Source: Chromera velia
Taxonomy: Eukaryota > Sar > Chromeraceae
Assembly: GCA_018398765.1 (NCBI GenBank)
Contig: JAHBMJ010000176.1
Coordinates: 2,036-27,035 of the forward strand
Length of the DNA stretch: 25,000 nt
Direction of reading: 5' to 3'
Made by a program: the position numbers and the translations under genes. The notes beneath the pieces were generated by a model, which was not told the DNA's origin, did no database searches, and worked only from the letters and a program-made list of their open reading frames with translations. Positions 5 through 22,789 of this stretch are shown one piece after another. The stretch's first letter is position 1. Each line of letters starts with the position of its first letter.

Positions 5-1164
5 ATGATGAAAGGTAAGGCAATTGGTGAAGCGGCTGCTTCAATCATTCATGCTTGGGCACAGAGTACTAAGAAGAGATTTCGTGTTGCTTTGTCTCCG
101 CAACAGCTTGCAGAAGACATCAGTGCTAGTGGTTTTCAAGTCAGCAGTCGAACCATCCGTCGCATTCTCAATAAAAAAGTAGCAAAAGAGCCCGTGTACA
201 AGCGCCACCATAGAGTTCAACAGAGGACTTTTACAGCAAAGGATGAGGAGGACATTGTGCGCTTCGTTCGAGAGGCAGGCCTCTATGGAATCTCCTGCAG
301 AGAAGTCACCCGGAAGCTCAATGCACGAGTGCGGAAGAAAAGCACTGTCAGTCCCACAAGATTCTTGCATGCATACATCATTCATTCCAGCCTTATGCAG
401 TGTGTTCCTCTTTTTATCCTTGTTATGTGCAGCCATTCACCTTTTCCACTGTTTGGCGTCATATGACCATGCGCATGAAAGACAGGCTTGAATTCAAGAA
501 GCCAGACTACCATCCACCCATTTCATCAGACACCAAAGCACACAGGCTGTTATGGGCAAAGGAAACAAAAGAACGGAAATGGAATTGGGAGAGAGTGATA
601 TTCATCGATGAAACACATTTCAAGATGGGGAGAAAGGGGGGCGTACGTAAGCAGTGGGTGCTGAAGGGTGCACCGTTGTGGCGTCCATACCTGCATCAGG
701 AGGGGGAGGGATTCACCGCTGTCATTGCTTTTTCTGCACGTGATGACATGCCCACAATGATCCGCATTTTTAAGTCATGTAAGAAAGAGAACTACAGAGA
801 CTTCTTAAAGGAAGTGATGCTGAAACGGAAGGACCCCGTTGCAGTGATGCATGACAATGCGCCTACTCACCGTGCCTTGATCACACAGAGGTTCTGCAAA
901 GAGAGAGGCATCGTCTTGGTCACTCAACCACCGTACTCACCTGATGTACAGCCAGTAGAGGATGTGATTGCATTGCTTAAGCATGAGGTGTATGGTGCAA
1001 ACCATGTGTACAGCAACAGAGAAGCCCTGGAAACAGCTGTGCAGAAAGCTTTCAACGCATTCAAGCAAAACACACAGATGCGCACAAATCTTGCCATGTC
1101 CATGCCTGATCGCATTGAGAGACTAGAGAAAGCAAAAGGAGCATGGGCCGCAAAGAAAGCATGA
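5..1164 (+). CDS. Tc1/mariner-like DD34E transposase, probably one intron
   Basis: Cut-and-paste transposase of the Tc1/mariner superfamily. The N-terminal part (5-328) carries a helix-turn-helix-like region (LSPQQLAEDI, then VSSRTIRRIL), as expected for binding the element's terminal repeats. The C-terminal part (433-1164) carries the DDE core: FIDETHF, then HDNAPTH, then PPYSPDVQPVED, with 34 residues between the second Asp and the Glu (DD34E). The two parts lie in different frames. Removing 329-432, a 104-nt GT-AG segment (donor GTGCGG, pyrimidine-rich tract before TGTGCAG), joins them in phase as LNAR|PFTF and gives 351 residues, the usual Tc1 length, with D167, D249 and E284. All three catalytic positions are kept. 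The alternative to an intron is a decayed copy with an indel. The left terminal repeat lies outside the window, and no right repeat could be matched. Confidence 0.85.
329..432 (+). other. putative 104-nt intron in the transposase gene
   Basis: A GT-AG segment starting GTGCGG and ending TTATGTGCAG, preceded by a pyrimidine-rich stretch. Its removal fuses the DNA-binding and catalytic halves in phase. Its length is close to the 100-nt intron at 6014-6113. Splicing is inferred from frame and signals only. Confidence 0.5.
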
Positions 1165-1226
1165 CTGATACAAGACTAACCTGGAGAGAAACGGTTCCAC
1201 CTCACTCTTCCTGCAAAGGTTTTTTT

Positions 1227-1262
1227 ATGATGAATATTCCATATGAAATATTCATTCATCAT
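1227..1262. repeat. imperfect palindrome downstream of the transposase
   Basis: ATGATGAATATT (1227-1238) faces AATATTCATTCATCAT (1247-1262); the right arm has four extra bases. It lies 62 bp after the transposase stop. It could be a 3'-end hairpin or part of the element's terminal region. No TA-flanked terminus could be assigned. Confidence 0.45.
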
Positions 1263-1296
1263 CTTTCTCTATCACCCTAGAAAACGCTTGCAAAAT

Positions 1297-1794
1297 TCAT
1301 GCCGTATGTTGTAAATGAGTTGGCACAATTTCCCTAGGAGCCCACATATGCCTAGTCTTGATACTAGTAACTAAACTGACCAAATTATAGCGAGGACGAC
1401 CTGGTCGTTCGTGGCAGCTCATGCAACGTAAGCGGCAATGCCTCGCCTCCCAACACAGGTCATCGAAAAAGGACTGCCACTCGTCGTGCCTCAACTTGAG
1501 AAAGTTGAGGTTGCATAGACGTAGTCGATACTCTGTGTCCTGGACGGGGCAGATGTGATCCTTCTCAAGATTCCAGCGAAAGAAAGTGATCTTTCGCCGT
1601 CTCCCTCTTCCAGGTATCCATCTAAATTGTTCCACTAACTGCAGAGGCTCCCCACAGCCAGTCTGCCCACACACACCGCCCATTCCCATTAAGATCCATG
1701 CATGTGCGTGCTGAGTGAGCGCATGTCGCTCTTCTCGCGATGGGACAGACGAGGGAGAAGGAAGGAGACAGGAAGCAACAGGTGTGCCCCCCAT
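1297..1794 (-). CDS. hypothetical Cys/Trp-rich protein or exon
   Basis: An uninterrupted 165-codon frame with an ATG at 1794. I do not recognise the family. The middle is protein-like, rich in aromatic and charged residues, with Cys/His pairs: CGQTGC near residue 42, then HICPV, LRLC, the ending CRLRCMSCHE, and the phrase DEWQSFFDDLC. This spacing could bind a metal, but no named zinc-finger pattern fits. The N-terminal 30 residues are Ser/Pro-rich and low in information, so the true start may be internal or the frame may be an exon of a longer gene. It converges with the transposase on the other strand, with about 130 bp between them. Confidence 0.4.
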   Translation of the reverse strand: MGGTPVASCLLPSPSSVPSREERHALTQHAHAWILMGMGGVCGQTGCGEPLQLVEQFRWIPGRGRRRKITFFRWNLEKDHICPVQDTEYRLRLCNLNFLKLRHDEWQSFFDDLCWEARHCRLRCMSCHERPGRPRYNLVSLVTSIKTRHMWAPREIVPTHLQHTA

Positions 1795-1799
1795 GAAAG

Positions 1800-2525
1800 T
1801 CGCAATCTTTAACGCTTTAGTCTACCTGTGAAAATTTGCGAGATTGAACTCTTTATAAGTGGAGCCTGCTCGACTATATATAGTTCTAAAGAGTCTTGAG
1901 CTTCATTATGAGATAGCTTTTCATATGGTAGTAGTTGAGAGCTGAATCTGCTGTTTGATCAGTTTTTAGCTCTGGTATCATAATCACGATACGTAGACGG
2001 TCAGCATGATTGATGCATACACATGCAGCCAGGCCCGCTAGGCGGATGCATGCATACATTTAAATTCAACAATGCCAACTGATTTGCAACGAGCTATACA
2101 AAGCATTGGACATATGATAAATAAAAAAAAAAGACCCAGCAAGATACCGAAATCATGACATAATCACAGACATATAGTCTTTAATTGCAAAAAAAATTTC
2201 TTTTTTTTTTTTCTTTTCGTCTTTTCACTGACATTTCTAGTAACATTTTTGGTTGTTTTGCACAATAAAAGTTTGTGTAGCTAACCTATATTATAAAAAG
2301 CTTTTAGGCTTTGAATGAGGCGACTTTTGGCCGCTAAAAACACTAAAAATCAACCGTAGAAACCCAGCTGTCATATAGTAAACGATGCACCTTATTTTAC
2401 ACCTGTTTTGCACCTGATTTAAGGTGCAAACTTGTTTTTGCACCAGCACCAGCTTCTTATGCACCTTATGCACCTTAATTTTCATACAGTGTCTAAATAT
2501 AACGTTGAAAGTCTGAATATGCATG
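1800..2525. other. AT-rich intergenic stretch, no gene seen
   Basis: AT-rich DNA with homopolymer A and T runs near 2125 and 2190-2215 and a TATATATA motif near 1876. At 2385-2480 the motif GCACCT/GCACCA recurs about eight times, once inverted as AGGTGC. This part probably includes the 3' flank of the minus-strand ankyrin gene. I see no RNA gene or coding frame that can be defended. Confidence 0.5.
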
Positions 2526-3984
2526 TCAGTCTGCAGAGGCTCCCGCTGGTACCAGAAGTGCTTTCATCTCAGAAGACCTGTTGAGCTGCACAGCAAGCTC
2601 ATGAGGGGTCTTTTCGTCCCTATCTCTCAACTGGAGGTTTGCACCTCTTTGAACGAGGAGGCGTACAATTCTAATCACACCCCATTTGATAGTATGATGC
2701 AGAGGTGTTGAACGTGCCCTTTGTGTGTGAGCATTCACATCGGCACCGTGATTCAAGAGGATCTCTAAGACCCTCCTCACAGACGTAATGAAACTCTTCT
2801 TCCTGGTGTGGGGACTGTCATGGCGGATCCCTCCAGGAATTGCCATCCTAATCGGAGTTGTGCCAAACCGGCAGGGCACATTAACCCTGGCACCGTTGTT
2901 GACCAGAATCTGCACGTATGCGGGTCTAGCTCTCATTGTAGCATTGATCAAAGCTGAATTGTCATCATCATCAACAGCATTGATATCGACCCCCTTTCCA
3001 AGGGAGAGCAACAGTAAATCCTCAAATTCCTGCCAGGAAAAAAAATGAATGAGAGATTCATCCTCACGCCCCCCCGGAGGGCTAATCCTCAGATCAGCCA
3101 CGTCGGACGTTTTCACGAGAAGATCTTTCAAGGCCGCACTGATGGTAGAGCGAACAGTGGGGTTCCCCTTTTGAGGGTTATAGTTCGGTTTGATCCATTC
3201 GTACTCTTCACTCCCAGTGTTCAGGTGTCGCTCTGCCGTCTCACAAGCGACTTGCATCCCTCCCCCTCGCATTCACGTTTGCCCCCTTTGCAATCAACGA
3301 CCAAACCATTTCCCACCGACGTAGACAGCACGCAACGATCACAACCATGTCGCCTTTGCGTACATCCCTGACACTCGTGCCTTTTGGCACCTTCCCTGCT
3401 TTGACCTCCAAGTCCGGATGGTCACTCAATATCATCTCAAAGGCTTCCATGTTGTTCGCACACATAGCCCTGATCATAGCCGTCTGGCCCTCTGCAAGTT
3501 CATTCACATCTGCCCCCACTTTCAGGCAAAGGCGAAAGTCGTCTCCCTGACTTGTATCCTTAAATAAGTTAGACATCGACAGCTTGAACGTCTCTGCCGA
3601 CAAAGGTCGAAACTCATGAATCACACCCCCCATGCCCAACTCGTACAGGTGACCCACGTCTATCCTGACGTGCCTGCTGATCACCTCACCAATCTGCCTC
3701 TCGCCAATCTGCCTTCTCATTTGTTTTGACAGGTTCTCTACCGCCACCTAGACTGCCACAAGAGCTGTGACGTCCTTGGGGTGCATACAGGGGACAGTCA
3801 TTTCCGCAGCAGCAGCTGCAGCTGCTGGCTCCTCATCCCTGTGTTCTACCCTCAAAGTGTGCTCAAGAATCTCAAGTTTCCTCTGGATGTACTGGAACTC
3901 AGAGGTGACAGAAGCCTGCAACGACTTCAATTGCTGCAGGTACTCTCCAGCTGTTAAGAGTAAAGCAACACCTGCCTCTGTCAT
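2526..3984 (-). CDS. coiled-coil plus ankyrin-repeat protein, frame interrupted (introns or pseudogene)
   Basis: Ankyrin repeats are protein-binding helical repeats; no enzymatic role is implied. The gene begins at ATG 3984 with a heptad-like helical segment (LQQLKSLQASV, then YIQRKLEILEHTL) and an Ala run, followed by repeat units ending in VGADVNE, KGANVNARG, KGVDINAVD, NGARVN, HGADVNA and RGANLQLRD, each with a TPL/SAL-type helix. The last frame ends at 2526. Two interruptions are visible. An in-frame TAG at 3748-3750 separates the coiled coil from the first repeats, with the same frame open on both sides. A frame change lies near 3245-3275 beside a run of five G. A 48-nt GT-AG segment (3748-3795) would remove the TAG in phase, but its splice signals are weak. 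Either short introns or a decayed gene is possible; the ankyrin assignment itself is firm. Confidence 0.7.
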
Positions 3985-10431: not shown

Positions 10432-10557
10432 CTAAGGATGAAAAGCAGAGAGCGATTTGCATTCCTTGCAGCATCGACGGTTCTTTCGGTGGACACAGAT
10501 TCCTTTCCCTCCACAGTCCCTACAGAAGTAGCGCAGCCGACCGTGCTCACATACGCT
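10432..10557 (-). pseudogene. frame-shifted tail of the CEHGR repeat gene
   Basis: After the main frame ends at 10547, a second minus-strand frame carries the last two repeat units, VCEHGRLRYFCRDCGGKG and ICVHRKNRRCCKEC, then a short tail ending at TAG 10432-10434. The final unit is degenerate (CVHRK instead of CEHGR), as is usual at the edge of a repeat array, so this is probably the original C-terminus. The frame change results from an 8-bp shortfall in unit 13. Confidence 0.75.
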
Positions 10558-11248
10558 CGCACTCCTTGCACTGAGAGCGAATGCGACCATGCTCACAGAC
10601 ACCCTTTCCTCCACACTTCTTGCAACTGTAACGGATTCGGCCGTGCTCACAAATGCTTCCCCCCACACACTTTTTGCACTGAGAGCGCAGCCGACCGTGC
10701 TCACAGATGCTCTTCCCTCCGCACTCCTTGCACTGAGCGCGCTGTCGGCCATGCTCACAGAAACCCTTCCCTCCGCACTCCTTGCACTTGCTTCGCTGCC
10801 GACCGTGCTCACATACGCTCTTCCCTCCGCACTCCTTGCACTGAGAGCGAATGCGACCATGCTCACAGACACCCTTTCCTCCACACTCCTTGCAACTGTA
10901 ATGTATTCGGCCGTGCTCGCAGATGCTCTTCCCACCGCACTCCTTGCACTGAGTGCGCCGTCGGCCATGCTCACAGACACCCTTCCCTCCACACTCTTTG
11001 CACTTGTTTCGCTGCCGGCCGTGCTCACAGACGCTCTTCCCTCTGCACTCCTTGCACTGAGAGCGAATGCGACCATGCTCACAGACGCTCTTCCCACCGC
11101 AGTCCTTGCACTTGGAGCGCTGCCGGCCGTGCTCACAGAAGCTCCCCCCTCCACACTCCTTGCAAGCGTAACGGATTCGGCCGTGCTCACAGATGCTCTT
11201 CCCACCGCAGTCCTTGCAAAGGCAGCGGACCCGTCCATGTTGACAGAG
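10432..11248 (-). repeat. 54-bp tandem repeat array encoding CEHGR units
   Basis: Fifteen units, thirteen in the main frame and two beyond the deletion. The variable positions show higher-order duplication. Units 4-5-6 (IRSQ, QRNK, RRTQ) resemble 8-9-10 (IRSQ, QRSK, QRAQ). Units 7-8 (IHYS, IRSQ) resemble 12-13 (IRYS, IRSQ). The repeat length, a multiple of three, keeps all frames open on both strands, which explains the long plus-strand shadow frame. Confidence 0.9.
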
Positions 11249-12547
11249 ACTCCTTCCATGGCGGTTTCTCTGCACCTCGCCTCCCTCTCGCAGACTCTCT
11301 AAACGACGGTTCTCAGACACCACCACTTTCGTGTCAGCGATCGGATCCCCCCTCCCTCTATAGGACTCCAAAGAGAGAGGGGCAAAGTCTGGGACAGACA
11401 GGGTCAATCGATGCTGCTTGTGTTCCCGAAGACAACCCCCCCCTCTCTCTCTTCCTCTCGAAGCACCCCCACTTATCTCACCGGGATACTCAGACACATG
11501 ATTGCACTCGTCCACCTCCCCCTGACAGAGGGGCAGGGCAGCCTCTGACCTCTGTCGCTTCAGGGCAACCCCTGAGCTGTGGGTCCCCTGTCTTTCTGCC
11601 TCGTGTCTGCGATCACAAGTTCGATCGTGCGAGTGGAGGTGGGAGGAGTTCGAGGGAGGGGAGGGAAGGATTCTGTTGTGGGACTTCAGGTCAGAGGGAC
11701 GGATACAGACTTCCTCTGCTGCATCGGGACTGTCAGAACACACATGGGCTTCTGCTTGTTTCTTCGGTCTTATCGTCTCACATGGTCTTTTGATGCCCCC
11801 ATCCCTTCCCCCCCGAACAGGAGATTCTGTGAACTTGACTGTTGACTCATGGTGACACACAGAAACCCCTGACTTGTCCTCACTCTCATCGGTTCGAATG
11901 AACATTCTGGAATCTGGTCGTGCCCTTCTCTGTGCGGAAGGAGGACACCCAGTCTCTGACTGAGGGCCATGCAGACCAGCATCCTCACTCTCTCTCTGCG
12001 GGTGCAGAGCAAGCAGAGCGAGCTGTACACTCTCAGGAATGCCCCACTCAACCGAAATTCCAACCACCTCCGTCTTATCCTGCTCTGGTCCACCCTTTGC
12101 ACCGACATAGACTATGCTGACACCCCTTTCTCCCACCCAAGAGGAGCCAACGGAAGCAACCCCATCAACGAGACGTACCACACGGAAGTCTCCCCCCTTC
12201 AGAGGCTCTAGACAAATGAGGTTGAGGGGAGCCGGAACCGTCACCGCGTCTGCCTCGTTCGGAACTGCAACCAGTCGAAACTTTAATTCTGACTCCCTCA
12301 CCCCTCCAACCTCCCCACCCACCCCCACAGCATCTGCAGAAACTCCCGACCCACCGAACGGCGACTCGGAGAGGTCCACCTCCACCTCACTCGACACCCA
12401 CAACGGACGCCCACACGGTGCAGGTCTCAGAGACAGCACACCACCCAACTCCCACCCTCCCAGCTCTGCACATTCCCCCACCACCACAACCCGTTGATTC
12501 TCTGGCAGCTCAGGGCAATGCACAACAAATGCGACGAGCCGCTTCAT
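10547..12547 (-). CDS. CBM20 starch-binding domain fused to CEHGR (CxH/CxxC) zinc-finger-like repeats
   Basis: The predicted protein has three parts. Residues 1-100 resemble a CBM20 carbohydrate-binding domain: VAFVVHCPELP, then RVVVVGECAELGGWELG, a second Trp (PLWVS) and ELKFRLVAV, matching the family's LG-x-W strand and K(F/Y) strand. CBM20 binds starch or related glucans. About 300 Ser/Gly/Arg-rich, probably disordered residues follow. The third part is an 18-residue tandem repeat (10547-11248), consensus CEHGRxRxxCKECGGKS, 13 units in this frame; each unit places Cys, His and a CxxC so that one metal ion could be bound. The start is taken at ATG 12547 because CBM20 begins right after it. 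The frame is open to 12625, with a possible 3' splice site (CTCTTTTTTCAG, ending 12593). The frame ends early at 10547 through an 8-bp deletion. Confidence 0.75.
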   Translation of the reverse strand: MKRLVAFVVHCPELPENQRVVVVGECAELGGWELGGVLSLRPAPCGRPLWVSSEVEVDLSESPFGGSGVSADAVGVGGEVGGVRESELKFRLVAVPNEADAVTVPAPLNLICLEPLKGGDFRVVRLVDGVASVGSSWVGERGVSIVYVGAKGGPEQDKTEVVGISVEWGIPESVQLALLALHPQRESEDAGLHGPQSETGCPPSAQRRARPDSRMFIRTDESEDKSGVSVCHHESTVKFTESPVRGGRDGGIKRPCETIRPKKQAEAHVCSDSPDAAEEVCIRPSDLKSHNRILPSPPSNSSHLHSHDRTCDRRHEAERQGTHSSGVALKRQRSEAALPLCQGEVDECNHVSEYPGEISGGASRGRERGGGCLREHKQHRLTLSVPDFAPLSLESYRGRGDPIADTKVVVSENRRLESLREGGEVQRNRHGRSLCQHGRVRCLCKDCGGKSICEHGRIRYACKECGGGSFCEHGRQRSKCKDCGGKSVCEHGRIRSQCKECRGKSVCEHGRQRNKCKECGGKGVCEHGRRRTQCKECGGKSICEHGRIHYSCKECGGKGVCEHGRIRSQCKECGGKSVCEHGRQRSKCKECGGKGFCEHGRQRAQCKECGGKSICEHGRLRSQCKKCVGGSICEHGRIRYSCKKCGGKGVCEHGRIRSQCKECERM

Positions 12548-13398: not shown

Positions 13399-13640
13399 GC
13401 CGGGGACACAAAAAAATTCTGGTATCCGATGCTATATAGGATACCGTTTGCTGACCCCCCCCCTCTCAAATAGGGGGTATCCGATTCCCCGGCGCGGCTT
13501 GACGCCTCGGGGAGACACAAAAAAATTCTGGTATCCGATGGTATCGGATACTGTATGGAACCCCCCCCCCCCTTAAAAATAATACGGTATATCCGATGGT
13601 CTGGACTGGAGGGGGGGGGCGCACAAAAAGTGTATCCAGA
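13399..13640. repeat. GTATCCGAT / poly-C repeat cluster, left
   Basis: Two tandem copies of GGGGACACAAAAAAATTCTG followed by GTATCCGAT start near 13402 and 13509; each leads into a run of 8-12 C. In the second copy GTATCCGAT and ATCGGATAC (13531-13551) form a hairpin with a GGT loop. A third, degraded piece follows at 13585-13640 (ATATCCGATGG, a run of G, CACAAAAAG). The family recurs inverted at 17297-17513. Confidence 0.85.
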
Positions 13641-17296: not shown

Positions 17297-17513
17297 GTAT
17301 CCGATAACCTCTATGGCAGTCACCCNCCCCCCCCCTTATCCGATACCATCAGATACACGAATTTTTTTGTGTCCCCCGGCCTGGCCGGCTTAGTACCGGG
17401 CTTACGAAGGAAAAGGCTGGGTCCGACTATGATATCCGATATGATCTAGAGCTGGTGACCCCCCCCCCCCTTATCTGACACCATCGGATACGGGAATTTT
17501 TTTGTGTCCCCGG
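17297..17513. repeat. GTATCCGAT / poly-C repeat cluster, right (inverted)
   Basis: Two copies, each with TATCCGAT, then about 20 bp, a run of C (17322-17335 and 17459-17470), ATCNGATAC and GAATTTTTTTGTGTCCCC (ends near 17377 and 17511). Read on the minus strand this matches the left cluster, so the two clusters face each other across about 3.7 kb. One base (17326) is an unresolved N inside the C run, which shows that the assembly is uncertain here. Confidence 0.85.
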
Positions 17514-17857
17514 GCCCCGCCGGGGCGCCGGCCGGGGGCCGCGGGGCCGGGGCATGCATGCAGCCGCGCGCGGCGGCCCCGACGCGCGCGCTTTGGCCCA
17601 CGGCGAGCTAAGCGCGGAATCGCTCACAAAACTCGGCTGGAAAGATCGAAGATCAAACTTTGGTCCAGGTCAACGCACCATGCTCAACGTGTCTTCATCT
17701 CTTCGTGCATTCTGCTCTGCGTCCGAATCCATTCACACCTATATACAGCCTCTGAAGTCCAGCATTGTCACATTGATCTTTGGAAGCAATCCACGAAGCT
17801 TGAGTCACTCAATCTAACAAGATCTCCATTGAACACACGTGGGTCTCATCAGGAAAG
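17514..17857 (+). promoter_or_regulatory. GC-rich leader upstream of the VIT-vWA gene
   Basis: 17514-17600 is extremely GC-rich and rich in CpG (GGGGCGCCGGCCGGGG and similar), unlike anything else in the window. It is followed by ordinary sequence with CTATATACAG at 17740. It is likely the promoter and 5' UTR of the gene starting at 17858. Frames in this stretch are compositional. Confidence 0.35.
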
Positions 17858-20800
17858 ATGTCTCCCCAGTTTGCGTCTGCCACCCTCCTGGTGGCAGCCC
17901 TCGCCTTGGCGGGGCCGAGCACAATCATCGCTCAACAAACAGGTGTTGGGTCCCCCGGAGACAACCCATTTACCATGCCGGGTTTGTACTACCTTCCCAG
18001 AGGTCCCTGCTGGTCTCCCTGGTGGCCTCGTCCTCCTTGTCCCACAACCACGCCCTCTCCCGACACTGACACAGGATCCCAAAACTTTTCCTTCCCTGTT
18101 CCTCTGAAGTCCTCCCACGCCTCCGTGAAAATGGTGGACCTGGTTGCTGAAGTCACGTTTACACAGACCTTCCAGAACTACGAGGAGGAGGACCTTGAGG
18201 CCAAGTACGTCTTCCCTCTCGTGGAGAACGCAGCCGTCAGTGGGTTCAAGGCTTACCTCAACGGCACGGTGGTCGAGGGAAGAGTGGAAGGACGGGAACA
18301 GGCCAAGAGAACTTACCAGGTCGCAGTTGACGGGGGAGACTCGGCATTCCTTCTCGAGCAACAGATGCCGGACGTTTTTGAAATCTCTGGTCAGTAACTC
18401 CGTCTATAAATATATATATCCGTCTACATTTGGGAAGACGACATTTTTGTTCACTCGTCGGTCGGTCTGGCTTCGTCCCTGCGTTCCGTCTCTCGTGGTC
18501 TTGATGTTTGCCTGCCTGCCTGCCTGACTGACTGACTGACTGCTTTCATTTCTGCTCCTCCGACTGCATCGTATTGCGGTCTTTGTCTTGGTCACTTTTC
18601 CATGCTTGTCCGAATGACAGTGTTTCCAGGCGATTACATTCTTATTCCGCTGCCTTCCGGACCACAACATCTTCTTTTTCGCTCTTCGTGTTCTTGTAGT
18701 TGATTACTCTTTTTTCTGCTCTTGCTTCTTCTTCTTCTTCTTCTTCTTCTTCTGCAGTTGGCCGACTGTTGCCCGGAGAGGAGGTGAAGATCGAAATCTC
18801 CTACGTTTTCGATGTCAAGTTCGCAGATGGATGCGCTCGGCTGATTCTCCCCACCGCTGTCGCTCCTCGATGTGAGTTACTCAAATAGTCTGCATGGTAC
18901 CTTTCCTGTCATCTGGCTTACTTCTGCTCTCTCCTTTTGTGCGTTCTCTTGTTCACGCCTTACTTCTGCTCTCTCCTTTTGTGCGTTCTCTTGTTCATGC
19001 CTTACTTCTGCTCTCTCCTTTTGTGCGTTCTCTTGTTCATGCCTTACTTCTGCTCTCTCCTTTTGAGCGTTCTCTTGTTCACGCCTTACATCTGCTCTCT
19101 CCTTTTGTGCGTTTTCTTGTTCACGCCTTACTTCTGCTCTCTCTTTTTGTGCGTTCTCTTGTTCATGCCTTACTTCTGCTCTCTCCTTTTGTGCGTTCTC
19201 TTGTTCATGCCTTACTTCTGCTCTCTCCTTTTGAGCGTTCTCTTGTTCACGCCTTACATCTGCTCTCTCCTTTTGTGCGTTCTCTTGTTCACGCCTTACT
19301 TCTGCTCTCTCCTTTTGTGCGTTCTCTTGTTCATGCCTTACTTCTGCTCTCTCCTTTTGTGCGTTCTCTTGTTCATGCCTTACTTCTGCTCTCTCCTTTT
19401 GAGCGTTCTCTTGTTCACGCCTTACTTCTGCTCTCTCCTTTTGTGCCTTCTCTTGTTCACGCCTTACTTCTGCTCTCTCCTTCTGTGCCTTCTCTTGTTC
19501 ACGCCTTACTTCTGCTCTCTCCTTCTGTGCCTTCTCTTGTTCACGCCTTAACTTTTCACTGCCCCCCAGGTCCTTCGCTGTTGCCTTTTGCTTCCTCCTC
19601 CTTCTCATCATTCCCCACCCCGCCCCCCCCAAATTTTGCAGATGCACCTGAAGACTTCGATCTTCCTGACTTCGTTGAGGATATCGTCTACAACACTGTA
19701 AGTTGGCCTCCCTGTCTGCTTGACTGCTGGTTTGTTCGGCTGCAAGCTTTCCTGTTTGTCTGAAGGAACGGTATCAAAGGTGTCTGCCCAAAGACATGGG
19801 CTCGTGTTTCTCCACTTATGTCATTGAGCGTGCCAGTCTCTCTGTGCACCCATAGTATCTCGACTGCTGCATGACTCTGCCGTTCGCTTTTGTGTATCTC
19901 TCTTCTCAATCCACTGGAGTATTTTCCCTTTCCCCCCTAAGTTCTTATTGTTCCCATATTTTCTCCCGTACGCAGCCAAAGACTCAATGAACTCGACAAT
20001 AGACGGATCACCTATCCCAAGCAGAGTGCTCCTGTTTCTTCGTCGTGGGACGTTTTTTCCTTTCTTGATCTTTTCATCTTTCTTGATCCTTCGTTCATTA
20101 CACGAATCTTTCCTCCCCTCGTCTTCTGCCTGCCTGTCTGCAGGGCAACAACGGAACTGGCAACTTCTCTACCAACAACGCAACCTACTCTGCCGACGTT
20201 GCCATCGAGATGAAGGGAGGCCAGAGCATCGCCTCCGTCTCCAGCCCCTCCCATCCCCACCTGTCCTCTACAGTCGCACAAGACGCACTCGAAGCCTCCT
20301 TCGCCTTCCCCCCCCAGAATCTCTCCCACAACGCAACCGACTTTGTCGTTGTAGTCGACTTAGACGGTGCCAAGCCTCCTCAAATCGTCTGGGAAGTCGC
20401 ATCGGACAGACAGAGTGTTGCTGCGATGCTCACCCTCGTGCCGGCCTTCACGAACGCCGAGATCAAACCCGAGATCATCTTCGTGACCGATGTTTCGGGG
20501 TCCATGTCTGGAGGTAAAATTGCTACTGCCCGCTCGGCTCTGAAGCTTTTCCTCCAGTCCCTACCGACCGACTCGTACTTTAACATCATTGCGTTCGAGA
20601 CATCTTACAGAGCTTTCAGCTCAGGCAGCAGCAGAAAGTACACCGCAGAGACACGAGACGAGGCCGACACTTGGATCGATACCAACATTGTCGCGAGAGG
20701 GGGGACCAATATTCTCCGACCCCTCGAGTACGTAGAGAACTTGCCTCCTGTCCAGGGGTATGCTCGGCAGGTCATTCTTCTGACCGACGGACAGGTCTGG

Positions 20801-22789
20801 AACACTGATGAAGTTGTCAATCTCGTCAGAAGAACAACCGAGACCACGAGATACTTCACAAGTCAGTCTGATCAACTGCAAAGGCACTTCTCCAAATGTG
20901 TGGTGTTCGAGTGGTTCAGCATTCAATCTTCCTATCAAACACACAGTCAGGTCAAGCTTGCAGCATTCTGATCATGCAAACAATTTCTAAAAAAAAACGA
21001 GCATGCCAAAGAAATCAGAAACACCGGAAAGGTCAATCAAGGTTTGCGAATTTGGGTGTCGATTGTCCCTCTGTCTGTTGGATGGCAGATGTATTTTGTT
21101 GAGTGACTTTTCGCGTTCATCTGTTTTTGGCTCCACCGGCAAATGTATGTAAATGTCTGTATGTGTATGTGTATGTAAATGAGTGTGTATGTATGTATGT
21201 ATGTGTGTGTGTCTGTGTCTCTGTCTGTGTGTGCAGTCGGTGTGGGCTCTGGGGCGAGTCGCGACCTGATTGCTCGCGTTGCCTCTGTGGGCCGGGGTCA
21301 CGAGGAGAACGTAGTGGACGGAGAGGATCCCCGGATGGCCGTTATGTCCCAACTCGAGCGGGCATCCCACGCCTCTGTAAATGACCTCTCCCTCAAGTGG
21401 CCCCAGGCAGAAAACCTCTGGAAAGCAGCGTCCATTGACACAGCCACCTCCTCCAATGACACTATTGCTGCTGCGGGAGTGCAGAGACTCCTTCAGGCAG
21501 TGGGGGGAGCGCCCAGGCTTTCCTTCTGGTCACCGACAGCAGCAGCCGCAGCACCTGCTTCCAGAGCACAGGCTCTCCGTGGAAGTGCCCCTGCACCTTC
21601 ACCCACCTCCATTCCTTCTTCCCCTCCCTCTGAAGCTACAGAGGTCCAGTCAGAGAGAACCTCCAACAGTACTACTCCCGCTGTCCAGCCGAGTGTGCCC
21701 GCATTCATCTCAGCTCCCTATCCCCCCCCCGCAGTCTACTCGAACAAACACCTGACTCTCTATGCCCTTTGGACCGTCCCTCCGTCCTCTCTGAACGAGG
21801 CAGTTTCTGTGGGTTCCCCTCTGTCTGTATCCCTCAACGGGTCTCTGGCAGGAACCCCCATTGACCTTTCTATGAAGATGAACAACACAGGTAGAGAGGC
21901 TGATGGGGTCGGGATCGTACACCATATGGCGGCTCGTGCGGTCCTCCGAGACCTCCGTGAGAAGAACATTCAAAATCTCCTCTCTGAGGAAGAGAAGAAG
22001 GGGGCAGAGGCACTGGGTGTGCGTTTTGGCCTAGCGTCTGAGTGGACCTCCTGGGTCGCCACCCTCGAGAGAGAGGGGGGGGGCGAGGAGGCTTCCTCTC
22101 TCATCACACGCAGAGTCCCCCAGCCTGGCGGGTATGGGTATGTGCCTCCTGCTGCAGGCTATCCTACAAGTAGCATCGGGTCTGGGTGGTCTAGTACTAG
22201 ACTGTCTCGGCCAGGATATTACAGAAGCGCTCCCGTTTGGGGTTCTAGAGGCCCTGTCTTTGGAGTTGGGAATGCTTTTGGGGGTCCGTCCTTTGGGGGA
22301 GTTGGTGCGGTTGGGGCGTCTCCTTTCGTTGGGGGGGCAATGCCAGCAGTCGGCGGACCCATGCCCACTCCTGCGCTAAGAGCGCCCACAACCACAACAC
22401 CTGCCACTGGTCTCCTGGGTCTCGTCCAGCTTCAGCAGTTCGACGGTTACTTTGCGTCTTCTGATGCTGAGAGAATCCGTACGGCAACGGCCGGGGCTGT
22501 GGATGTGCAGGCAGCACAACTGATGACAACAGTCAGAGACAGTCTGAACAGGCTTGTGGGGGCCTCAACCTCTCCTAGAACGTTCTCCTTCTCCATGCCA
22601 AATTTCAGTGCGACCCTAGGTGCAGTCGCATGGCTTGAGGCCGACCCCGTGCGTGCGTCCGCAAGTCGCCTAGTGCTCCAGAAAGCCCGATCGTGGTTGA
22701 GATCCCGAGTGGCAGAGGCAGGAGGGGCGGGTTCAGCGGCTTCTGTTGACTCGCTTGTGAATGCTGCGAGGGGGTCTCTTGGTATCTAG
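17858..22789 (+). CDS. secreted VIT + von Willebrand factor A protein (ITIH-like), five exons
   Basis: Exons are 17858-18389, 18758-18871, 19642-19697, 20144-20861 and 21237-22789. All four introns are GT-AG (donors GTCAGT, GTGAGT, GTAAGT, GTCAGT; acceptors TGCAG, TGCAG, TGCAG, TGCAG) and splice in phase to 990 residues. Residues 1-26 form a signal peptide (hydrophobic core LLVAALALAG). A VIT domain spans about 79-220 (KYVFPLVENAAVSGF, later LLPGEEVKIEISYVF). A vWA domain spans about 340-510 with a complete MIDAS: DVSGSMS at 350, Thr422 in GGTN, Asp449 in LLTDGQ. This predicts divalent-cation-dependent ligand binding. A Pro/Ser linker (575-635) and Gly/Pro-rich tract (770-855) precede a C-terminal module (QLQQFDGYF, AVAWLE, KARSWLR) known from VIT-vWA proteins. 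No transmembrane helix is seen near the end, so secretion or wall association is likely. Confidence 0.93.
18390..18757 (+). other. intron 1 of the VIT-vWA gene
   Basis: A 368-nt GT-AG intron in phase 1, joining EIS to VGRLLPG. It contains a short GCCT/GACT tetranucleotide run (18508-18541). Its polypyrimidine tract is an expanded (TTC)n microsatellite of about 30 bp (18724-18753) directly before the acceptor. Confidence 0.9.
18872..19641 (+). other. intron 2 of the VIT-vWA gene, filled by a minisatellite
   Basis: A 770-nt GT-AG intron (donor GTGAGT, acceptor TTTTGCAG) joining APR to YAPEDFD. Most of it (630 nt) is a 42-bp tandem repeat. The codon split across the junction (T|AT) gives Tyr, restoring the frame. 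Confidence 0.88.
18921..19550. repeat. 42-bp minisatellite, 15 copies, with 168-bp higher-order unit
   Basis: Exactly 15 units of 42 bp, consensus beginning CTTCTGCTCTCTCCTTTTGT. Variants (CAT against CAC, GAGC against GTGC, CATC against CTTC) recur every fourth unit over units 1-12 as read on the plus strand, so the array grew by duplication of a four-unit, 168-bp block. The last three plus-strand units are a separate variant (GCCTTC instead of GCGTTC). Because 42 is a multiple of three, antisense frames stay open and spell a 14-residue charged pattern (RREQENAQKERAEV). That frame has no independent support as a gene. Confidence 0.95.
19698..20143 (+). other. intron 3 of the VIT-vWA gene
   Basis: A 446-nt phase-0 GT-AG intron: donor GTAAGT, acceptor CCTGTCTGCAG. 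No repeat or coding insert was seen. Confidence 0.9.
20862..21236 (+). other. intron 4 of the VIT-vWA gene
   Basis: A 375-nt GT-AG intron with donor GTCAGT. A TATG/TGTG-rich stretch (about 21143-21232) precedes the acceptor. It splits an Ile codon, giving RYFTIGVGSGASRDL, which matches the vWA family sequence across the junction. Confidence 0.9.

What the first reader, a model, noticed from the sequence alone, without database searches (positions are those of the whole stretch)
10432..12547. CBM20 starch-binding domain fused to a CEHGR metal-binding-like repeat array
The N-terminus shows CBM20 strand motifs (VVVVGECAELGGWE, PLW, ELKFRL). The C-terminus is a 15-unit array of an 18-residue motif with C-x-H-x6-C-x2-C spacing. 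Each unit has four potential zinc ligands. I know of CEHGR-type repeats in algal and protist proteins but not of this pairing. A glucan-binding module linked to many small metal-binding or nucleic-acid-binding units could connect starch granules to regulation. The function is inference.
Basis: partly seen in the sequence, partly recalled or inferred. Interest (0 to 1): 0.75.

Follow-up and report, generated by a model that had tools for sequence, protein, structure and literature searches.

The report
Starch-domain and zinc-repeat gene family
An alga-like genome holds dozens of genes that join a worn-down starch-binding domain to a long string of small zinc-binding repeats, and the same repeats sit in front of DNA-cutting enzymes in viruses and in this genome, so these proteins probably grip DNA or RNA rather than starch.

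Summary
On the minus strand (12547 to 10547) one 666-codon frame joins a CBM20-like N-terminus, a linker and 13 in-frame CEHGR units; two more units lie out of frame behind an 8-base shortfall. It is no lone oddity: the genome has 45 places like this N-terminus, and 31 of 45 face, head to head 1.45-1.8 kb away (one 2.9 kb), a second CBM20-hit gene; three pairs opened over 10 kb show arrays behind both. CBM20 ancestry is solid for the family (array-fused profile hits a cyclodextrin glucanotransferase at 5e-8), but the window copy scores below Pfam's cut-off and 0 of 9 array-fused sequences aligned keep all three known glucan-site residues. The array is the better clue. In viral contigs 10 of 13 array ORFs carry an HNH or endonuclease-VII-like domain behind it; this genome has 72 HNH clusters, 51 with two hits. 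Units have three freely varying positions in a conserved frame, with similar residue choices in virus and alga; the array is strongly basic; linkers keep a KRxR nuclear-signal-like motif. Best reading: an expanded family of nuclear nucleic-acid-binding proteins with a remodelled CBM20 domain. The starch part is not supported. Binding is untested.

The parts
10547..12547 (-). open reading frame of 666 codons plus stop: CBM20-like domain, linker, 13 in-frame CEHGR units (type-A family member)
12182..12547 (-). CBM20-like N-terminal domain, residues 1-122; W32 and K89 of the known glucan site kept, second Trp replaced by L113; long insertion between about residues 58 and 86
11246..12181 (-). linker, residues 123-434, not matched by Pfam
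11549..11560 (-). KRQR, nuclear-signal-like K[KR]x[KR] motif, residues 330-333
10550..11245 (-). array of 13 in-frame 18-residue CxH-x6-CxxC units (the last one cut short), residues 435-666; net charge +32 over residues 435-663
10432..10553 (-). two further units and C-terminal cap (CVHRK...CKECK), out of frame with the main ORF after an 8-base shortfall in the 54-base period; the cap is like that of copies read in L059 and L060

Best explanation
The gene is one, possibly recently damaged, member of a large paralogous family of probably nuclear nucleic-acid-binding proteins. Shown by sequence: a diverged CBM20 domain, a linker, and an array of 18-residue zinc-ligand units; many paralogues, mostly in divergent head-to-head pairs of two subfamilies that duplicated together; broken copies, i.e. 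birth and death. Inferred: each unit binds one zinc ion through C-x-H...C-x2-C, the basic units line up along DNA or RNA, and residues 6, 8 and 9 of each unit face the target and tune which sequence or structure is bound. The same array stands in front of HNH or endonuclease-VII-like domains in viral contigs and in this genome, where it would deliver the nuclease; in the CBM20 proteins the catalytic part is absent and the CBM20 beta-sandwich is kept for another tethering role (a partner protein or a changed glucan).
For: 45 places match the window's N-terminus at 60-80% and lower identity (45 taken of 78 matches); 19 of 20 type-A loci have 7-13 units downstream on the same strand, the exception being 32% masked; 31 of 45 are head to head with a second CBM20 hit, chance expectation 0.02. 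CBM20: array-fused profile A3 hits 16 PDB sequences at E<=0.01, best cyclodextrin glucanotransferase 5e-8, glucoamylase 4.7e-5. Nucleic-acid role: 10 of 13 viral array ORFs have a nuclease-like domain behind the array, with PHROG support for 4 (L071 HNH 4.3e-13, L068 HNH 1.6e-8, L064 and L070 endonuclease VII 1.4e-4 and 4.5e-4) and weak Pfam Endonuclease_7 support for L073 (19.5 bits, E 9e-4) and L067 (13 bits, 0.096); own-genome HNH domain L008 matches endonuclease VII PHROG 4.6e-7 and the viral array-HNH protein at 46% over 82 residues; array-HNH-array-HNH read in 2 of 2 loci opened for it. Unit variation: frame pN/pS 0.14-0.25 against 0.87-1.04 at positions 6, 8, 9 in CBM20-type arrays; residue frequencies at 6, 8, 9 correlate 0.95, 0.89, 0.75 between CBM20-type and viral units. 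Array net charge +32, pI 9.3; CBM20 part -7. K[KR]x[KR] in 29 of 31 linkers examined, 28 if only the mid-linker motif is counted, against 0.00-0.39 in shuffles.
Against: No binding, localisation or expression data. Window copy alone is below Pfam's CBM20 cut-off, and the type-A-only profile finds only laforin at E 0.3 in the PDB. No fold match for the three-unit model (0 hits at E<=10); the CBM20 model failed (pLDDT 36). pN/pS near 1 at positions 6, 8, 9 also fits plain lack of constraint; the palette of position 9 in CBM20-type arrays resembles viral position 6 (r 0.88) more than viral position 9, so part of the agreement is general Q/R richness. Three viral array ORFs have no nuclease behind the array (L074 and L075, the same short 3-unit protein; L066, interrupted by a transposase-like stretch). 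The linker motif may be shared by descent within each subfamily.
Confidence: 0.6

Rival explanations
1. One reading: the CBM20 domain anchors the protein on starch (cytosolic in such algae, recalled) and the array binds metal or nucleic acid there, tying starch to regulation.
For: CBM20 ancestry is real for the family; type-A copies keep W32 and mostly K89, subfamily C keeps both tryptophans. No N-terminal leader precedes the domain (sequence).
Against: 0 of 9 array-fused sequences in A1 keep all three residues (W, K, W) that PMC9254107 (passages seen) names as critical, while the unfused own-genome CBM20 of L029 keeps all three; W to L in 12 of 12 type-A rows; nuclear-signal-like motif in the linker.
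Confidence: 0.15
2. The array is a metal store or sink (metallothionein-like), and the variable positions are merely unconstrained surface.
For: Four potential ligands per unit, 13 or more units; pN/pS about 1 at 6, 8, 9.
Against: Positions 6, 8 and 9 use restricted residue sets (position 6 lacks C, D, F, G, W, Y in 305 units and has P, S, A near zero) shared with nuclease-fused viral arrays; arginines 5 and 7 are kept.
Confidence: 0.1
3. The divergent gene pair is, or was, a mobile element that scattered itself through the genome.
For: 31 of 45 copies in the same two-gene arrangement on many contigs; A and B trees agree (Mantel r 0.70, p 1e-4 for 17 pairs; but 0.19, p 0.12 for all 19 including two with broken B frames; nearest neighbour shared by 9 of 19, p 2e-4; 3 of 22 partner loci looked up gave no alignable start and were dropped).
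Against: In three 10-kb copies, 51 of 665 between-copy alignments fall outside the two genes and the 40 printed are all array remnants at two places in L059 (11 not printed); no conserved ends and no transposase gene in the pair; domain under purifying selection.
Confidence: 0.1
4. The array is a DNA tandem repeat whose translation is accidental.
For: 54-bp period with a 216-bp higher order; long open frames also exist in other frames of the array.
Against: Synonymous change far exceeds replacement change at frame positions; same protein motif in viral contigs of 30-50% GC.
Confidence: 0.02

Closest known systems
CBM20 starch-binding module (Pfam PF00686; glucoamylase, cyclodextrin glucanotransferase, laforin)
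   Same: Profile similarity over the domain, LGxW and PxW motifs, the xKF strand in type A
   Different: Window copy under Pfam's cut-off; second stacking Trp lost in types A, B and D, K changed in B, C and D as aligned; long insertion in type A; fused to a zinc-ligand array instead of an enzyme
HNH / endonuclease VII-type nucleases with CEHGR arrays (viral contigs L064, L065, L067, L068, L070, L071, L073; own-genome L008, L076, L077)
   Same: The same 18-residue unit, spacing and residue palette
   Different: No nuclease domain in the window gene; CBM20 at the other end
Modular nucleic-acid readers (C2H2 zinc-finger arrays, TALE, PPR; recalled)
   Same: Tandem units with a conserved frame and a few variable positions per unit
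   Different: No recognition code, structure or binding shown; no Pfam family for the array
EsV-1-7 cysteine-rich repeats of brown algae (spacing recalled; search listing seen)
   Same: Short Cys/His repeat arrays in algae and a virus
   Different: Spacing differs (C-x-H-x6-C-x2-C here against the recalled C-x4-C-x16-C-x2-H)

Membership tests
CBM20 | Pfam PF00686 score at or over the gathering cut-off (23.3 bits) | tested here: not met
   Window copy 18.0-21.9 bits; met by array-fused relatives L038, L057 and the L060 partner gene
CBM20 | profile homology of the array-fused family to solved CBM20 domains | tested here: met
   A3, nine array-fused sequences including the window: CGTase 5e-8, glucoamylase 4.7e-5; but type-A alone only laforin 0.3
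CBM20 | three glucan-site residues W, K, W (PMC9254107, passages seen) | tested here: not met
   W32 and K89 present, second W is L
CBM20 | beta-sandwich fold | tested here: inconclusive
   single-sequence model, mean pLDDT 36.4
CBM20 | binding of starch or alpha-glucan | not testable with these tools
   needs pull-down
CEHGR-array nucleases | array of CxH-x6-CxxC units in 18-residue steps | tested here: met
CEHGR-array nucleases | HNH or endonuclease VII domain in the same protein | tested here: not met
   no such Pfam or PHROG nuclease match in P0001; out-of-frame tail P0002 has only a sub-threshold Zn_Tnp_IS91 match (10.8 bits)
known zinc-finger family | match to a Pfam zinc-finger model or a solved fold | tested here: not met
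   array: 0 Pfam families at E<=10; three-unit model (pLDDT 82.3, pTM 0.46): 0 Foldseek PDB hits at E<=10
transposable element | conserved ends beyond the genes, or own transposase | tested here: not met
   three copies compared (11 of 51 outside alignments not printed); no target-site test made

The most novel reading that the evidence does not exclude
CEHGR units are a modular nucleic-acid reading system, one 18-residue zinc unit per target step with residues 6, 8 and 9 as the reading residues. Viruses and this alga use it to aim nucleases, including natural single-chain array-HNH-array-HNH enzymes that look like a paired zinc-finger nuclease, and the alga has a second, nuclease-free set (CBM20 type) of similar size that shares the reading module and may compete with, mark or silence the nucleases' targets.
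Probability: 0.22. Interest if true: 0.92.

Novelty: new variant of a known kind. Interest (0 to 1): 0.66.

Why it matters
If the array reads nucleic acid, this is an undescribed programmable-looking binding module with hundreds of natural units in one genome and a natural nuclease form, testable at once by binding selections. It would also show a starch-binding fold recruited into a large nuclear gene family, and give a concrete case of a gene set in a free-living relative of apicomplexan parasites (organism inferred, not tested) shared in part with viruses. Even without the code reading, the array has no Pfam model and the fusion was not found in ten full-text searches.

Tried and rejected
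Viral and phage searches with the window's own array: IMG/VR scan gave 64 pattern stretches but no confirmed relative; the phage collection gave one weak hit, Synechococcus phage B23, 24.6% identity, annotated as a secretory antigen precursor, not pursued. A degenerate DNA pattern then found 12 stretches on 8 viral contigs and 0 in genome contigs (exact pattern only). Transposon reading: tested by flank comparison, no element ends. Alignment A2 was made in a wrong reading frame and not used further. Structure of the CBM20 part: uninformative. L101's N-terminal repeats looked to me like halves of AP2 domains, but there was no Pfam hit at E<=1 and only HNF1-beta at E 0.15 in the PDB: dropped. 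Rfam: no match in the window. NCBIfam: none. Literature, all ten searches: 17, 18, 19, 31, 32, 38, 67, 70, 71, 98; the motif strings CEHGRQR and CKECGG, Chromera+CBM20, Chromera velia+starch+carbohydrate-binding module, and Chromera+HNH gave 0 papers each in the held open-access library. Of PMC4501334 I saw abstract, outline and passages; of PMC9254107 passages; the other listed papers as listings only.

Full report
What is there. The window lies on contig C175 of an unnamed 177.8-Mb assembly in 4040 contigs. The size and gene content fit Chromera velia (193.66 Mb, 5953 scaffolds in PMC4501334, passages seen), but the organism was not tested. On the minus strand a frame opens with ATG at 12547 and stops at 10547. 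Pfam finds CBM_20 at its N-terminus, below the cut-off. From residue 435 come 13 in-frame units C-x-H-x6-C-x2-C in 18-residue steps. An 8-base shortfall in the 54-base period then breaks the frame; two more units and a C-terminal cap follow in another frame and end at 10432. Copies in L059 and L060 carry a like cap in frame, so the break is either recent or an assembly error.

A family, not a curiosity. Searching the genome with the first 116 residues gave 78 matches, of which I took the 45 best places (E<=5.8e-14) as type A. A Pfam CBM_20 search gave 101 matches. Of the 45, 31 have a non-overlapping CBM_20 hit head to head on the other strand, 30 of them at 1452-1794 bases and one at 2900; chance would give about 0.02. 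Some of the 14 unpaired lie near contig ends; the window's copy is unpaired and does not. Opening three pairs over 10 kb (L059-L061) showed that the partner (type B) has the same build: CBM20, linker, array, although in L061 its array is in a separate frame. Of the 14 type-B loci held as short stretches, 6 show units before the stretch ends (L039, L044, L046, L051, L053, L054); in the others the array would lie beyond the end. Two further subfamilies, C (L042, L049, L050, L052, L057, L058) and D (L038), also join CBM20 and array, except that L052 shows no unit in the held stretch. Nine CBM20 loci (L029-L037) have no units in the held stretch. 19 of 20 type-A loci have 7-13 units downstream; L010 is 32% masked. 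In 12 of 20 the domain and at least 7 units sit in one frame inside the held stretch (recount); several others have stops or frame breaks, so copies are being lost.

How the pair spread. In a tree of 46 N-termini, A and B form separate groups and the same loci group together in both; the one D row falls inside B on a very long branch and is not to be trusted. Distances in A and B agree (Mantel r 0.70, p 1e-4) for 17 pairs, but r is 0.19 (p 0.12) when two pairs with broken B frames are kept; nearest neighbours agree for 9 of 19 (p 2e-4). Three of 22 partner stretches looked up were dropped because no start motif was found. So the pair was mostly duplicated as a unit. Between three copies, 51 of 665 alignments fall outside the two genes; the 40 printed are all array remnants in L059, and 11 were not printed. 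I found no element ends. PMC4501334 (passage seen) says that close head-to-head genes are commoner than chance in both chromerids.

CBM20: a member by descent, with a worn site. A profile of nine array-fused sequences hits 16 solved sequences at E<=0.01, all amylolytic enzymes except laforin (best 5e-8); with two unfused own-genome CBM20s added, 53 (best 4.1e-10). Type A alone reaches only laforin at E 0.3. L057 alone hits glucoamylase at 0.0025. PMC9254107 (passages seen) names two tryptophans and a lysine as the glucan site. In alignment A1 the first Trp is in 11 of 11 rows; the second is in 4 of 11 (L050, L057, L029, L033); 0 of 9 array-fused rows keep all three; the unfused L029 does. In 12 of 12 type-A rows the second position is leucine. 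I therefore do not claim starch binding.

The array: what it works like. Pfam has no family for it. A degenerate pattern for one unit found 12 stretches on 8 viral contigs and none in the prokaryote collection. I read 13 array ORFs there (L070 and L072 are the same protein, and L066, L069, L074, L075 come from two near-duplicate contigs): 10 have a nuclease-like domain behind the array. PHROGs names HNH for L068 and L071 and endonuclease VII, weakly, for L064 and L070; L065, L067 and L073 had no PHROG match, and Pfam Endonuclease_7 is sub-threshold for L073 and L067 and absent for L065; L069 is judged by eye. In the window's genome the HNH domain of L008 has 125 matches in 72 clusters: 51 of two, 20 of one, one of three. 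Two such loci opened show array-HNH-array-HNH in one frame (20 and 15 units). The algal and viral HNH domains are 46% identical over 82 residues. Three arrays assigned to neither set were opened: one (L101) has six units behind an unrecognised long N-terminus, one (L102) is a 33-unit protein, one (L103) looks like a broken type-A or -B tail.

Variation within units. Across window, A, B, C, D, HNH and viral units, positions 6, 8 and 9 are the most variable in nearly every group, while 4, 5, 7, 11, 14 and 15 are conserved; in the viral set 16 and 17 are nearly as variable. In 27 CBM20-type arrays (222 units) pN/pS is 0.25 for the frame and 0.93 for 6, 8, 9; for closest between-array pairs (176) 0.18 and 1.04; for closest within-array pairs (76) 0.14 and 0.87; for viral units 0.33 and 1.49; for own-genome HNH units 0.25 and 0.72. 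Positions 1, 3, 10 and 13 are fixed by the search pattern. The residue sets are restricted and much alike in 288 CBM20-type and 48 viral units (r 0.95, 0.89, 0.75 at 6, 8, 9), though off-diagonal values reach 0.88. This fits reading residues but does not prove them.

Where it acts. The array carries net +32, the CBM20 part -7. A K[KR]x[KR] motif occurs in 29 of 31 linkers of at least 120 residues (3 of 34 proteins dropped as too short); shuffled linkers have it in 0.00-0.39. The CBM20 domain starts within a few residues of the first Met, which leaves no room for a plastid leader (inference). I read this as nuclear.

Structure. Three units modelled with 14 other segments gave pLDDT 82.3 and pTM 0.46 with hardly any regular secondary structure, and no PDB match at E<=10. 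No zinc was modelled. The CBM20 model from one sequence failed.

Verdict. The pairing is real and recurrent; CBM20 by descent, nucleic-acid binding by inference, starch link unsupported.

Noticed in passing
L076 (G000:C53:23300-26700), L077 (G000:C3703:15600-18900), L001-L008: Large set of CEHGR-array HNH nuclease genes: 125 HNH matches in 72 clusters, 51 with two HNH hits; two opened loci read array-HNH-array-HNH in one frame.
   Followed up: partly
L102 (G000:C91:33900-37900), 572-3490 +: A 973-residue open frame with 33 CEHGR-type units and no recognised other domain.
   Followed up: no
L101 (G000:C15:40200-43200), 502-3000 -: Six CEHGR units behind a long N-terminus with internal repeats of unknown family.
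   Followed up: partly
L066 123-827 -: A viral array gene interrupted by a stretch that looks by eye like an IS200/IS605-type transposase, where the near-duplicate contig copy L069 reads on into an endonuclease-VII-like domain.
   Followed up: no
window 247-1164 +: DDE_3 transposase-like frame (Pfam PF13358, 59.5 bits).
   Followed up: no
window 2526-3747 -: Ankyrin-repeat frames (Pfam Ank_2 60.5 bits).
   Followed up: no
window 17804-22789 +: VIT domain (93.2 bits) and VWA domain (72.6 bits) in separate frames, as in an inter-alpha-trypsin-type gene with introns.
   Followed up: no
window 18917-19550: 42-bp tandem repeat, 15.1 copies at 96% match, lying between the VIT and VWA frames and open on the minus strand for 298 codons as a charged 14-residue repeat.
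   Followed up: no
window 13510-13550 and 17337-17377 (also 17430-17523): Dispersed short repeat with GGTATCCGAT motifs in inverted orientation about 3.8 kb apart, flanking the simple-repeat block where the missing partner gene would be expected.
   Followed up: no
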